DNA from: Sciurus carolinensis
Taxonomy: Eukaryota > Chordata > Mammalia > Rodentia > Sciuridae
Assembly (NCBI RefSeq): GCF_902686445.1
Contig: NW_025920104.1
Coordinates: forward strand, 7,254,001 to 7,318,000
Length of the DNA: 64,000 nucleotides
Direction: 5' to 3'
Below, one piece after another: positions 56,493 through 64,000 of this stretch; position 1 is the stretch's first letter; every line of letters starts with the position of its first letter. The position numbers were made by a program, and so were the translations under genes. Under the pieces are notes generated by a model, which saw nothing but the letters and a program-made list of their open reading frames with translations, was not told the DNA's origin and did not search any database.

Positions 56493-56604
56493 GAGACTGA
56501 TGACTCCCATTATGTACGCTGCACGGGATGGCCACCCTCAGGTGGTTACTCTCCTGGTTGCACATGGAGCAGATGTGAATGCCCAGGACGAGAATGGTTA
56601 TGCT
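56493..56604 (+). CDS. ASZ1: ASZ1 copy 2 exon 5 (ankyrin repeat)
   Basis: A 112-bp exon after acceptor CCTCCTCACAG. The split AG|G codon with exon 4 gives Arg, then RLMTPIMYAARDGHPQVV and TLLVAHGADVNAQDENGYA follow, ending before donor GTGAGA. It is a strong ankyrin consensus unit (TPIMYAARDGH, LLVAHGADVN). Copy 1's exon 5 ends the same way at window bases 1-9 but with donor GTAAGA. Confidence 0.96.
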
Positions 56605-57169
56605 GTGAGAAATATTCTACAACATTTCTTTTTAATTTTTGCTAACTTTATTATTACCCTTAATCTATGAAAATAGATGTTTAGTTGTTTTTATTACAAA
56701 AAGATTTCTAAGAAGTAATAAGTACAGAAAATCTAGGGTATAATCACTGTTTGGTGAAAAGCAGCAACAAATGAATGAAGAAAAAAGTAATCATTTGACT
56801 CTTGTAGTCATTATTCATGACAAAAGTTATAATGTGCAAAGAAACCTGGACTCTGAATTTACATAAAGATTGCTTTTTTGTAGAAAACATTTTGGTGATT
56901 GGCATATAAATCATTTTGTTCCATAACATTGCTTAACTGTAAAATATTTGATTTTATAAAACAGTGAACATTGCAGTCCGCTTTGCAATTATAGCATGGG
57001 AAGTATGTTACATTACAATATGGGAAATACGTTTATATTGTTAAACGAAGAGGTTGCATCATTCTATAAATTAACCATTCTATGTGCCATTAATACTGTT
57101 GAAGACAATTCCTATCTGTCTCATGTGCACTCCTTCTCTTTAAGAAATCCTCTTTTCTTCCCTATACAG

Positions 57170-57304
57170 GCTTTAACATGGGCAGCACATCAAGGTCATA
57201 AAAATGTAGTTTTGAAGTTGCTTGAACTTGGAGCTAATAAAATGCTACAAACCAAAGATGGAAAGACACCAAGTGAGATTGCAAAAAGAAACAAACATCT
57301 TGAG
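57170..57304 (+). CDS. ASZ1: ASZ1 copy 2 exon 6 (ankyrin repeat)
   Basis: 135 bp, phase 0, encoding the same 45 residues as copy 1 (one synonymous base). Acceptor CTATACAG and donor GTATCA. Confidence 0.95.
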
Positions 57305-58146
57305 GTATCATCTATATGTTAAACTAATTTTTCTGTGATATGTCATATTATCTTATATAGAACTTTTATGTTATTTTGTTGGAATTCACAAGTGTAATAA
57401 TAGTTTTTTCAGCTATTAAATGTATAAATATTTTTTCTCCACCTAATATTTTTTGAGTAATTTTTCATCTGCTAAATCAAAGACATTTATAGTGTGATAA
57501 GTTATGTAAAAGGATAAGTCTTACTATGTTGCCAATAATGAAAATAGAGTACACTATATTATAAAGTGGTTTAGATTTTTAAAAATTAACTTATGTATTG
57601 AAACAGTAAAGTGTCAACATTTGAAGACGCACTTAAAACATTGGTGTATAATTTTAAGTTTTAGATGTTAGACAATTTAAAAGTTAAATCCTTTAAGCAA
57701 CATTTATTCCTATGTTATGACAAGGTGTGTGGTAAAATGATAACATACTTGGGTATATGATCTGATGTCATTCAGATTTTAAAGCTGAATGATAAATATT
57801 TGCCATATATCAAATTATTTTATGAATACAAACTTTTGGTGTGAATACTAAACTTTTAGTCAGTGACATGTACTTTCTAAGCATGAGTCAAGTATGATAG
57901 CATTGTAAAATTATTAAGTACAAGAGTTCATAACACTGAGGTTCTGAATTTTAAAGTTTGTGAAAATCCACAAGTTCTATTATACAAGTGTCAGACCATG
58001 CCACTTATACTGCACATAAAATAACTCCACTAAATTTTGAGCAGTCTAATAAACATGATATCATTTTCCAAATAATATGTACATTTCCAAAATTATTCTA
58101 GAATAGAGACTAATCACTAAAGTCTTGTAAAATTTCAAAAAGAAAT

Positions 58147-58351
58147 CTGGGCATGGTGGTGCATGCCTATAATCCCAGCAGCTCCAGAGGCTGAGGCAGG
58201 AGAATCTCCAGTTGAAAGCCAGCCCCAAGAGATTAGCAAGGAATTTAGGAATTCAGAGAGACCTTGTCTCTAAATAAAATATAAAAAAGTACTGGGGATG
58301 TGGTTCAGTGGTTAAGCACCCAAGGATTCAATCCCTAGAATAACAAAAAAC
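58147..58351 (+). mobile_element. Dimeric SINE (orthologous to 1566-1770)
   Basis: Same position and orientation within intron 6 as in copy 1, with a few substitutions. It was inserted before the duplication. Confidence 0.9.
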
Positions 58352-58969
58352 ATTTTTTTGCATTATTTCTTCTAACCTTTGAAAATTTGGAAACTAAAAA
58401 TTAGTTTACTACATTATTAAATTTTGGGTAGATGACACTGAATTTGATATAATAAATTTATGATCAAAGGTTATATCATTTCTTATAATGAAATTTGATG
58501 TTATATTTTGAATGATTACATGACATAGCCTTGACTTTGTAAGAAGTTAGATTGTAAAACTAACAAATTTTACCATATTGCATTGAGTTTAGATTTGTAT
58601 ACATTTAAGCAAGTTTATTTCTTCCTTCTCTCTTACCAGTGTATTTCAGTTACTACCTTAAACTTGATATTTCTGAGTCATTTATCAAAATGGCATTTTA
58701 GTTTTGTATCATATATTACTAAAAATGCTACTCTGTCTAATTTTGCTCTTTTGAATTAGTTATACTCTTTGCTTCTTTTATGTCAAGGAAGAATTTACTT
58801 GAGTTTATAAAAGTCATTCTCAGGGTAACAGGTCATGAAAGTTCTGTCCCTTATACCTTGCTAAAATTTTATTTTCCAGTTGAAAAATAATCATATGTTA
58901 TTTTTTTAAATGCACTTAACAGTATATAAAAATATTAACTATATTTGGCTAATTTCTGAAACTTTTCAG

Positions 58970-61193: not shown

Positions 61194-61250
61194 GAAAGGG
61201 ATATAACTTTAAGACACCTTTTGACCATGAAAAAAGATGAATTTGTAAAG
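61194..61250 (+). CDS. ASZ1: ASZ1 copy 2 exon 9 (SAM domain)
   Basis: 57 bp, identical to copy 1, encoding ERDITLRHLLTMKKDEFVK. Acceptor TTCTACAG and donor GTTAGT. Confidence 0.94.
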
Positions 61251-61656
61251 GTTAGTATCATTTTCAAAAACTCTAGCTGTACTAATTTTTTTTAAATTGT
61301 ACCTCCTTTTATTTTCTATTTCAGTAATCGTAGTGTTACAAACTGATTGATATTTTATTAGGTTCTTGATTAAATATGATTATGAAAAACTAAAAAATCT
61401 GATTATAGTATTAAGTTACTTTAAAAGCATTTAAAAACATAAAGTTGTGATTTTTTTCCTTTAGGTGGTCATGATATCTCAGTTAAAACCAGTACTTCAT
61501 TTCTAAATGTGAAATAGATTTGCAAAACAGACTTAGAAATAAGAGGTGTTGTTTTAAATGTATGTGGATATAGGTATGTGTCTTAGAAATAGTACCACTA
61601 TTGTTATTTTCTCAAAACTATCAAGATATTACTTTGTTCACATATGAATACACAAC

Positions 61657-61790
61657 TAATGGAATCCAAATCATATAGAACCACAAGGGTGGGATCCTAA
61701 TTAGTATAAGTTATGCTCCATGTATGTACAATATGTCAAAATATAGTCTACTGTCATGTATATCTAAAAAGAAAAAATAAAAAGTCATGA
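61657..61790 (+). mobile_element. L1 3' end fragment (orthologous to 5096-5220)
   Basis: Same L1 tail as copy 1, with an altered A-rich end (AAAAAGAAAAAAT against an uninterrupted A run). Confidence 0.75.
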
Positions 61791-62262
61791 TTTTGACATC
61801 TAATATTAACAATTAAAAAGTAGTGTGAGAAATATTAGGGATATTTTGATAAATAGGCTGTGTAAAAAAGCAATGAATACATTAGAAACTTGAAATTATT
61901 GTAACCACTAATTTTGATTGAAACCTGAAATTATTATTAGAAGCACTAATTTTGATCATTACAAAATCAAAATAAGCATACTATATCAACTTGTACTCTA
62001 TTGTTTTGACTATTATGTATTAAAATCTAGTAATTGGGTTTGAGAGTCTATCACAATTATTATATATTGCAAAAATATTTTAGTAGTATAAATAGCTTCA
62101 TAAGTCACACTTATAAGCAAACCATATATTTTATTATATTATTTTCTAATATGTCTGTTTTTTAAGATGCAGCTTTCAGCAGAAAATCTCTTTAATGATT
62201 TTGAAGATTAAATTATTCTAGTATAATTATCTTAACTACACCTTAAAATTATTTCTACTTAG

Positions 62263-62372
62263 TTTGGGATTAACAATAAAGATCAGCAGAAAATTCTGGC
62301 TGCTGTTAAAGAACTGGAGGTAGAAGAGATAAATTTTGGAGAGTTACCTGAAGTGGCAAAGTTGGAAGTGAG
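62263..62372 (+). CDS. ASZ1: ASZ1 copy 2 exon 10 (SAM domain end)
   Basis: 110 bp, identical to copy 1 exon 10, ending in the split AG codon before donor GTAAAG. This is the last exon of copy 2 inside the window. Confidence 0.95.
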
Positions 62373-64000
62373 GTAAAGTTAACTTATCAATTTATATTAA
62401 TATTATGTAGAATCAACTCTTCTTATTTAGTTTAATTTTGATAATGTCTGGGTCATTTGATTTTATAACATTATTTTCTCAAGGAAAGAGATTTTGAAAT
62501 ATTCTCTGTTCAGAAATCAAATACCCTTTGTAAAGTCAATTTTTATAGATATTTTACTAAGAAGCAAACCACTGCATCGTCTTAACTCACGTTGAAACAT
62601 TAATGCTTTATTTTTTATTGCATCTTGTTAAATCAGACTATATAAGAGAGACCATGCTTTTCCAAGTATAGTTCTTACACTCTTTAAATTATTTTTAGAT
62701 GTCAAACAGAAAAAAATTAGAGTAGTAATATTTTCTCTTAAGTTAATAAGGAAGCATTTCTCATATGCTCTTAGCTATATTTTCAGCCTTTATTATGTGA
62801 GATATTTTGTTATCAAGATATAAATTTTATTTCCAGTAATATAAAGTTGTTAAGCACTGATTATGATTACTAATAATCCAAAGTCTATTTCACTTTATTA
62901 ATAACTTGTAGAGAAGTGAATGTTTTTTTAACTTTCTATTTTAAAATAATTGTAGATTCACATGATATTTCAGAGATAAAAAGGGAGGTCCCATGCATCC
63001 TTCATGCAGTTTGACCCAGTGTTCCTATCTTATATAACTGTAGTATAATATCCAAACCTGACAATCTATTTGTATTTTACTATTTATGCATGCATTCATT
63101 TGTATGTGTATATTTAAGTCTATGTAATTATATCATGTATAGTTTCATGTAACCACTCTCAACACTTAATATTTATGTACCACTAGCTTCCTCATCCAAC
63201 CCCGTTATAGCCATACCCATCCCTTTCCCCATTTTAATCCCTAGCAAGTGATAATTTGTTCTTCATCTTTATAATATTATTTCATGAATGTTATATAAAT
63301 AGAATCATGCAGTAAATGTCTTCTAGAAATTGACTTTGCAATCATTGTTAAGTTCAGTCAATTGTAGTTGCATGTATCAGTACAACACTTTATTCCTTTT
63401 TGTGGGTGAGTAGTATTTCATGGTATGTTTTAACCACATTTTAATCATTTACCCATTGACGGACTTTTAAGTAGATTTTAAAATCTGATTATTCCAAATT
63501 AAACTGCTGTGAATAAGATTCTTTTCTAAAGTAAGTGTTCATTTCTCTTGGTAAAAATGTTCAGGAGAGCATTTTAAAGGTTGCATGGGAGCTACACTTT
63601 AGTTGTTTTGTTTTTATTAACTAGTCCACTTTTTTCCAAAATGTCAGTATTGTCTTATGTTCACCCAACTATATATTAGTGATCCAGTTTCTCTGCATAC
63701 TCATCAGCATTTGGTTTAAGCACTAATTATTTTTAGCCATTTTCACAGGTGCGTAGTGATGGATCATTGTGATTTTATTTGCATTTACCTAAAGGATAAA
63801 GTTTTTGAATATCTTTTCATGTCTTATTTGGTATCTGTGTATCCTTTCTTGTGAAATGTCTGTGTCTCTTGCCCATTTTATTTTGTATGTATTGTTTTCT
63901 AACACTGATATGGGGAAGTTGTCTAAATTCAAGTCTTTTGTTGGATTTGTGCTAATTTTTTTTAGTCTGTAATTTTTATTTTCATCTTGATGGGGTCTTG
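62373..64000 (+). other. Intron 10 of ASZ1 copy 2 (left part)
   Basis: Colinear with 5823-7444 of copy 1. From about 62935 it is the same old minus-strand L1 fragment as in copy 1, cut by the window end. No other feature. Confidence 0.85.

What the first reader, a model, noticed from the sequence alone, without database searches (positions are those of the whole stretch)
56596..64000. Head-to-tail duplication of ASZ1, a piRNA-pathway gene
Bases 56596-64000 repeat 1-7444 in the same orientation, including exons, shared SINEs, an L1 tail and an old L1. Two stretches compared by eye (361-590 and 721-1080) show roughly 1.5-2% substitutions plus indels. Both copies keep open frames and canonical splice sites. 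ASZ1 is normally single-copy in mammals and acts in germline transposon silencing, so a second copy would be a notable lineage-specific event.
Basis: partly seen in the sequence, partly recalled or inferred. Interest (0 to 1): 0.85.

Follow-up and report, generated by a model that had tools for sequence, protein, structure and literature searches.

The report
Duplicated squirrel ASZ1 germline gene pair
The grey squirrel carries, besides its normal copy of a sperm-line gene that helps silence jumping DNA, a scattered family of extra copies, most of them apparently decayed, and the pair seen here still looks like working genes.

Summary
The repeat is real: window 1-7443 and 56596-64000 match at 96.7%, same orientation, inside a tandem unit of about 56 kb. 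The genome fits Sciurus carolinensis mSciCar1. The pair is not canonical ASZ1 plus a copy: a slowly evolving ASZ1 sits on chromosome 8, and the pair belongs to a second, faster family of at least 16 copies on C15, C16 and smaller scaffolds. Copy A, read beyond the window, has 13 exons, canonical splice sites and an open 479-aa frame. Copy B has exons 3-13 open; exons 1-2 would lie at a 100-N gap on the unit junction. Of the 14 other copies, 13 are truncated, frameshifted or splice-damaged in the few exons examined; one could not be judged. A-B changes favour silent sites (omega 0.19, p 0.01). Red squirrel has an A-type protein. Four processed copies are nearer to A than to chromosome 8, so A-type genes were once transcribed in the germline. 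Best reading: a squirrel ASZ1 paralogue, amplified, mostly decayed, two members kept by selection. Present expression, chromosome and sex-linkage are untested.

The parts
1..7443 (+). part of tandem unit A that repeats at 56596-64000
   Evidence: 96.7% identity, E=0; the unit starts upstream of the window at C16:7238122
56596..64000 (+). part of tandem unit B that repeats 1-7443; the unit continues past the window
1..9 (+). ASZ1 copy A, last 9 bases of exon 5 (exons 1-4 and the rest of exon 5 lie upstream, C16:7235933-7254009)
588..722 (+). copy A exon 6 (ankyrin)
   Evidence: AG/GT borders, open
2399..2523 (+). copy A exon 7 (end moved by one base so that the donor reads GG|gtaaca)
3343..3418 (+). 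copy A exon 8 (SAM start; acceptor tatag|TTC; start moved by one base)
4627..4683 (+). copy A exon 9 (SAM)
5713..5822 (+). copy A exon 10
16620..16725 (+). copy A exon 11
17526..17639 (+). copy A exon 12
21255..21407 (+). copy A exon 13, coding part with stop; C-terminal membrane tail
25637..31702 (-). L1 of about 6 kb inserted in unit A and not in unit B, downstream of exon 13; flanking direct repeat CATTCATCTGTT; unit B keeps the empty site (one base differs); ORF2 interrupted. Ends approximate.
40564..40663 (.). 100-N scaffold gap exactly at the junction of units A and B; copy B exons 1-2 would fall here
41261..41383 (+). copy B exon 3 (ankyrin)
43538..43649 (+). copy B exon 4
56493..56604 (+). 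copy B exon 5
57170..57304 (+). copy B exon 6
58970..59094 (+). copy B exon 7
59915..59990 (+). copy B exon 8
61194..61250 (+). copy B exon 9
62263..62372 (+). copy B exon 10 (exons 11-13 lie past the window, C16:7327132-7331918)

Best explanation
The window holds two members (A and B) of a second ASZ1 gene family of tree squirrels. The whole gene with its promoter region (about 53 kb, colinear with chromosome 8 in blocks of mostly 78-86% identity) was copied from the chromosome 8 locus before the split of grey and red squirrels. It then multiplied into at least 16 dispersed copies, most of which decayed. A and B arose from one late duplication and both kept an ASZ1-like protein under purifying selection. 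The likely working: they make extra GASZ protein in germ cells, anchored in the mitochondrial outer membrane by the C-terminal tail, pairing with itself or with the chromosome 8 protein, and adding to or modulating the intermitochondrial cement where piRNAs are made. Shown here: the copies, exons, frames, splice sites, signs of constraint, and past splicing of A-type transcripts. Inferred: present expression, protein localisation, partners and effect on piRNAs.
For: Copy A: 13 exons, 1440 bp, 479 aa, no stop, canonical borders. Copy B: exons 3-13 likewise. A versus the chromosome 8 gene: dN 0.041, dS 0.162, omega 0.25. A versus B: 6 silent changes in 270 sites and 4 replacement changes in 948, omega 0.19, Fisher p 0.0105; 10 coding changes against 26.2 expected from the unit as a whole, Poisson p 2.7e-4. 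A crude neutral model gives a probability of 5e-4 (distance 0.034) or 8e-8 (distance 0.072) that the frame would be intact. 13 of the 14 other copies show a lesion or truncation in the few exons examined, so the surroundings do not protect frames. Pfam finds ankyrin repeats and SAM in A as in the chromosome 8 protein. The Sciurus vulgaris protein P0001 is 97% identical to A over 98% of it (95.8% over all aligned columns) and has A's residue at 30 of the 40 positions where A and chromosome 8 differ. Four processed copies (L029, L030, L031, L032) match A: chromosome 8 at 36:15, 43:9, 31:12 and 42:17 of 62 diagnostic sites, the rest uncovered or other. 18 of the 40 amino-acid differences lie in two of the six stretches of the model with pLDDT under 50 (P0001 1-39 and 238-277); all six together hold 23 of 40.
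Against: No RNA or protein data. The A branch took 29 amino-acid changes against 3 on the chromosome 8 branch, with 8 unassigned, so constraint is weaker than on the normal gene; four hit columns that are otherwise invariant among the 17 other sequences compared. Copy B lacks exons 1-2 in this assembly. The A-B omega rests on 10 changes. Purifying selection on the older A branch could have ended recently. The retrocopies date from earlier A-type genes, not necessarily A or B. One other copy (C16:3.70M) could not be judged and may be intact or not.
Confidence: 0.7

Rival explanations
1. Neutral segmental duplication: A and B are simply the youngest copies of a decaying family and have not yet acquired lesions; they make nothing of use.
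For: 13 of 14 other copies are damaged or truncated in the part examined, the 14th unjudged; replacement changes are about tenfold more frequent on the A branch than on the chromosome 8 branch (29 to 3).
Against: A-B changes avoid replacement sites and coding sequence; a full-length A-type protein is recorded for red squirrel (P0001); intact frame improbable under the neutral model.
Confidence: 0.2
2. Assembly artefact: the two copies are haplotypes of one locus, or contigs from distant places wrongly joined at the gap.
For: The 100-N gap lies exactly at the unit junction; the paper says Hi-C data were sparse and the primary assembly is a mosaic of both haplotypes (PMC7653645).
Against: About 2.1% even divergence over 41.7 kb is above ordinary heterozygosity (recalled, not measured here); the L1 insertion is in unit A and not in unit B; 14 further copies and a red squirrel A-type protein show that the family is real. 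Wrong adjacency, as opposed to wrong existence, is not excluded.
Confidence: 0.07
3. Sex-linked ampliconic gene: C15, C16 and the small scaffolds are X- or Y-linked sequence that the curators did not place, and ASZ1 was recruited there as a male germline amplicon.
For: Testis gene, many dispersed copies, repeat-rich sequence and decay of most copies resemble ampliconic Y families (recalled).
Against: By file order and size arithmetic C15-C23 look like unlocalised pieces listed after chromosome 14, and the published Y is 4.81 Mb while C16 is 8.40 Mb. On the contig sized as X (C30) the probe found only the short repeat element. The direct test, locating ZFX/ZFY, did not complete (17 attempts).
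Confidence: 0.12
4. Selfish or interfering amplicon: A-type protein pairs with normal GASZ and dampens or redirects it, and the amplification reflects conflict (drive or transposon control) rather than need.
For: Fast evolution of the A branch, with 29 of 32 polarised changes; mouse GASZ works as a self-interacting protein (PMC10781510, passages), so a variant subunit could interfere; amplification followed by decay.
Against: No direct evidence. The region matching the mouse self-interaction stretch and the membrane tail changed little (3 of 57 and 2 of 43). The five changes in the first 20 residues, the MILI-binding part in mouse, are within the range of the six control pairs of chromosome 8 against other database ASZ1 proteins (2 of 16 to 8 of 15).
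Confidence: 0.12

Closest known systems
ASZ1/GASZ (chromosome 8 orthologue in this genome; mouse Gasz)
   Same: Same 13 exons and domain order as the chromosome 8 gene; 91.6% protein identity (40 of 479 differ).
   Different: Not at the chromosome 8 locus; faster protein evolution; multi-copy; on a scaffold with several decayed sisters.
ampliconic testis gene families of mammalian sex chromosomes (as a kind, recalled)
   Same: Testis-type gene, many copies, most of them decayed.
   Different: No sign so far that the scaffolds are X or Y; copies are 2-9% diverged, with no gene-conversion tract seen between A and B.
lineage-specific autosomal gene amplicons such as mouse Sp100-rs (recalled, not tested)
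   Same: A gene amplified with flanking DNA in one lineage, with many degenerate copies.
   Different: No evidence of drive, polymorphism or fusion transcripts here.

Membership tests
ASZ1/GASZ proteins | ankyrin repeats followed by a SAM domain | tested here: met
   Pfam Ank_2 3.6e-46 and SAM_2 2.8e-9 in copy A; 6e-46 and 1e-9 in the chromosome 8 protein
ASZ1/GASZ proteins | 13-exon gene with the exon lengths of the chromosome 8 gene and canonical splice sites | tested here: met
   copy A 13 of 13 exons; copy B 11 of the 11 exons assembled, exons 1-2 not assembled
ASZ1/GASZ proteins | C-terminal mitochondrial membrane anchor | tested here: inconclusive
   tail residues 437-479 differ at 2 of 43 from the chromosome 8 protein; localisation not testable here
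ASZ1/GASZ proteins | self-interaction (mouse residues 345-401) | not testable with these tools
   sequence kept at 54 of 57 positions; binding not tested
ASZ1/GASZ proteins | germ-cell expression | not testable with these tools
   only indirect: four processed retrocopies of A-type transcripts
ASZ1/GASZ orthologue (the ancestral gene) | is the slowly evolving locus closest to other mammals | tested here: not met
   chromosome 8 protein is 92-93% identical to its three best hits; copy A is 86-87% to its best hits outside Sciurus; 29 changes on the A branch against 3
sex-chromosome ampliconic gene | located on X or Y | tested here: inconclusive
   contig order and sizes argue for an autosome; ZFX/ZFY search unanswered
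sex-chromosome ampliconic gene | copies kept near-identical by gene conversion | tested here: not met
   A-B divergence even, 1.4-3.3% per 2-kb bin

The most novel reading that the evidence does not exclude
Tree squirrels evolved a second, fast-evolving ASZ1 whose protein joins the germline mitochondrial cement with the ancestral one and changes piRNA output, and whose amplification was driven by genomic conflict (transposons or drive); it would be a mammal with a duplicated and diverging piRNA-factory scaffold.
Probability: 0.15. Interest if true: 0.8.

Novelty: new member of a known kind. Interest (0 to 1): 0.5.

Why it matters
ASZ1 is essential in the mouse male germline (PMC2727916, title and abstract start in the listing) and is usually treated as single-copy (recalled). 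A constrained second gene in squirrels, with chromosome 8 keeping the original, would be a natural experiment on whether the piRNA scaffold can be duplicated and specialised. It also warns that squirrel ASZ1 annotations mix paralogues: the three database proteins named as Sciurus that were found here (P0001, P0030, P0065) are of A-type.

Tried and rejected
Haplotype reading: judged unlikely on even A-B divergence of about 2.1% and on 14 further relatives. Y chromosome as the first guess: weakened when contig sizes were read against the published table; not settled. Gene conversion between A and B: no low-divergence tract. Adaptive change in the first 20 residues: 5 of 20 differ between A and chromosome 8 (p 0.019), but six control pairs of chromosome 8 with other database ASZ1 proteins give 5 of 20, 4 of 16, 3 of 17, 2 of 16, 3 of 16 and 8 of 15, so no claim. 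Ten other open frames of the window (10 of the 89 listed) have no Pfam match. A first count of 14 of 14 damaged copies was wrong: at copy C16:3.70M I took withheld bases (N) for a lost part of exon 6; one search showed this, and the count is now 13 of 14 with that copy unjudged. Literature: ASZ1 with Y chromosome and squirrel, with Sciurus, with gene duplication and piRNA pathway, and with copy number, paralog and rodent gave 0, 0, 2 and 4 papers; by titles and abstract starts none is about squirrel ASZ1, and none was opened. A looser search, two of ASZ1, Y chromosome and ampliconic, gave 261 papers, of which 15 were listed, none holding ASZ1. Two searches on squirrel amplicons and duplications listed 4 and 12 papers with no bearing by title.
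Full report
What is there. The window is C16:7254001-7318000 of a 2.815-Gb genome in 752 contigs. Contig number, total size and chromosome sizes (for example C8 = 148.23 Mb) match Sciurus carolinensis mSciCar1 (PMC7653645, part 1 of 2 of the text seen; sizes). The repeat 1-7443 = 56596-64000 is confirmed at 96.7%. With 50 kb added on each side, the repeat is one unit of about 56.4 kb, present twice: C16:7238122-7294563 and C16:7294664-7345079, separated by the 100-N gap at window 40564-40663. Gap and unit junction coincide, so the existence of both copies is firm but their adjacency is a scaffolding statement.

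Which gene. Processed retrocopies elsewhere in the genome allowed all 13 ASZ1 exons to be placed. Copy A spans C16:7235933-7275407 (coding part) and reads as an uninterrupted 479-residue protein with canonical borders. The exon 7 and 8 borders printed are one base off and are corrected in the parts list. Copy B has exons 3-13 open; exons 1-2 would lie in the gap. A database protein named as Sciurus carolinensis (P0065, contig of 260,897 bp; whether from another individual was not determined) has exons 1-5 with the B-type residue at 170, which suggests, but does not prove, that a B-like copy has exons 1-2.

Not the canonical gene. A third locus, C8:35616445-35672880 on chromosome 8, encodes a 479-residue ASZ1 that is 92-93% identical to its three best database hits (P0007, P0003, P0002); copy A is 86-87% identical to the same three. 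Of 40 amino-acid differences between A and chromosome 8, 29 are assigned to the A branch, 3 to the chromosome 8 branch and 8 are unassigned, with seven outgroup proteins (five are named as pig, sperm whale, vole, guinea pig and jerboa, while the species of P0007 and P0014 is cut off in the listing). Hence chromosome 8 holds the ancestral gene. Its neighbours (CFTR and WNT2, recalled) were not checked.

A family, mostly decayed. A 3-kb probe finds 16 A-type copies: eight on C16, one on C15, and seven on C55 (two), C90, C209, C245 and C265 (two); counts are lower bounds by the tool's own statement. Besides A and B, 14 remain, and 13 of the 14 show damage in the few exons examined. 6.91M, 1.81M, 2.24M, C209, C265a and C265b lack one base in exon 6, most with further lesions; 7.95M has 2- and 3-base deletions and a stop in exon 7; 8.115M has lost the exon 5 acceptor and one base of exon 9; C55a lacks one base in exon 5; C245 has lost the exon 5 donor; C55b and C90 break off at the same place after exon 6; C15 breaks off before exon 7, with exons 7-10 open. 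The 14th, C16:3.70M, could not be judged: the probe match starts past exon 5, part of exon 6 is withheld, and exon 7 is open. A tree of 10 sequences, about 2.3 kb each (C15 1.5 kb), that is A, B, chromosome 8 and 7 of the 14 others, groups A and B (support 99), then C15 (98), then C245 (100), apart from a clade of five decayed copies (100). Distances: A-B 2.1%, A-C15 3.8%, A-C245 5.4%, A-decayed clade 6.6-8.7%, A-chromosome 8 12.5%. With a recalled rodent-like rate of 2.2e-9 per site and year these would be very roughly 5, 9, 12, 15-20 and 28 million years; the rate is an assumption.

Selection. A versus chromosome 8: omega 0.25. A versus B: omega 0.19 from 10 changes. The unit as a whole predicts 26 changes in copy B's 1223 coding bases, 10 are seen (p 2.7e-4); silent 6 of 270 against replacement 4 of 948 sites (p 0.0105). 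The neutral chance of an intact frame is 5e-4 or less under a simple model that takes its indel rate from A-B and assumes three in four indels shift the frame. Against strong constraint: the A branch holds 29 of 32 polarised replacement changes, and four of its changes (positions 19, 27, 36, 389) hit columns otherwise invariant among 17 other ASZ1 sequences; red squirrel P0001 shares three of these four. P0001 is a full-length A-type protein (A's residue at 30 of 40 differing positions), P0030 a shorter one. The list shows 120 of 4368 hits and hides the members of each cluster, so absence of A-type proteins in marmots or ground squirrels is not shown. In an AlphaFold model of P0001 (mean pLDDT 62.9) the ankyrin block is confident; two of the six low-confidence stretches (1-39 and 238-277) hold 18 of the 40 differences, all six hold 23. 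The choice of these stretches was made after seeing the differences.

Germline use. Retrocopies L029, L030, L031 and L032 carry the A state at 36, 43, 31 and 42 of 62 diagnostic sites, and the chromosome 8 state at 15, 9, 12 and 17; the rest are uncovered or other. L033 is the reverse, 13 to 42, and may also predate the duplication. Inherited retrocopies must arise in the germline, so A-type genes were transcribed and spliced there at some time.

Mechanism. In mouse, GASZ is held at the mitochondrial outer membrane by its C-terminus, recruits MILI through its first 20 residues (PMC12507516, passages) and clusters mitochondria through self-interaction of residues 345-401 (PMC10781510, passages). 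The A-type keeps the tail (2 of 43 differ from chromosome 8) and the self-interaction stretch (3 of 57); the N-terminal 20 differ at 5, within the range of the six control pairs. The most likely role is therefore additional or modulating GASZ in germ cells. This is inference.

Open points. Chromosome: C15-C23 sum to 33.9 Mb and with C29 (6.4 Mb) nearly fill the 41 Mb of unlocalised sequence implied by the paper's 92.3% and its table; by file order C15-C23 would belong to chromosome 14 (inference). The direct test against sex chromosomes did not complete (17 attempts).

Novelty. Lineage-specific duplication and decay is a known process, and the protein is an ordinary ASZ1 by domain. The searches, in a library that lacks most subscription papers, showed no report of a second ASZ1 in squirrels.

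Noticed in passing
window 25637-31702: L1 of about 6 kb on the minus strand, present in unit A and absent from unit B, with direct repeats and an empty site in unit B; ORF2 interrupted. A fairly young insertion beside a transposon-silencing gene.
   Followed up: partly
L029 (C12), L030 (C2), L031 (C14), L032 (C13), L033 (C12): At least five processed ASZ1 retrocopies in the genome, four of them nearer to the A-type.
   Followed up: partly
contigs C15-C23: Nine scaffolds of 2.4-8.4 Mb (33.9 Mb) listed after chromosome 14 look like unlocalised sequence; C16 holds eight A-type ASZ1 copies and C15 one.
   Followed up: partly
L059 (C90) and L060 (C55): Two copies truncated at the same point after exon 6, probably duplicated again as a truncated piece.
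   Followed up: no
P0065: A database ASZ1 protein named as Sciurus carolinensis skips exons 6-9 and reads on past exon 12; probably a gene model error or a rearranged copy.
   Followed up: no
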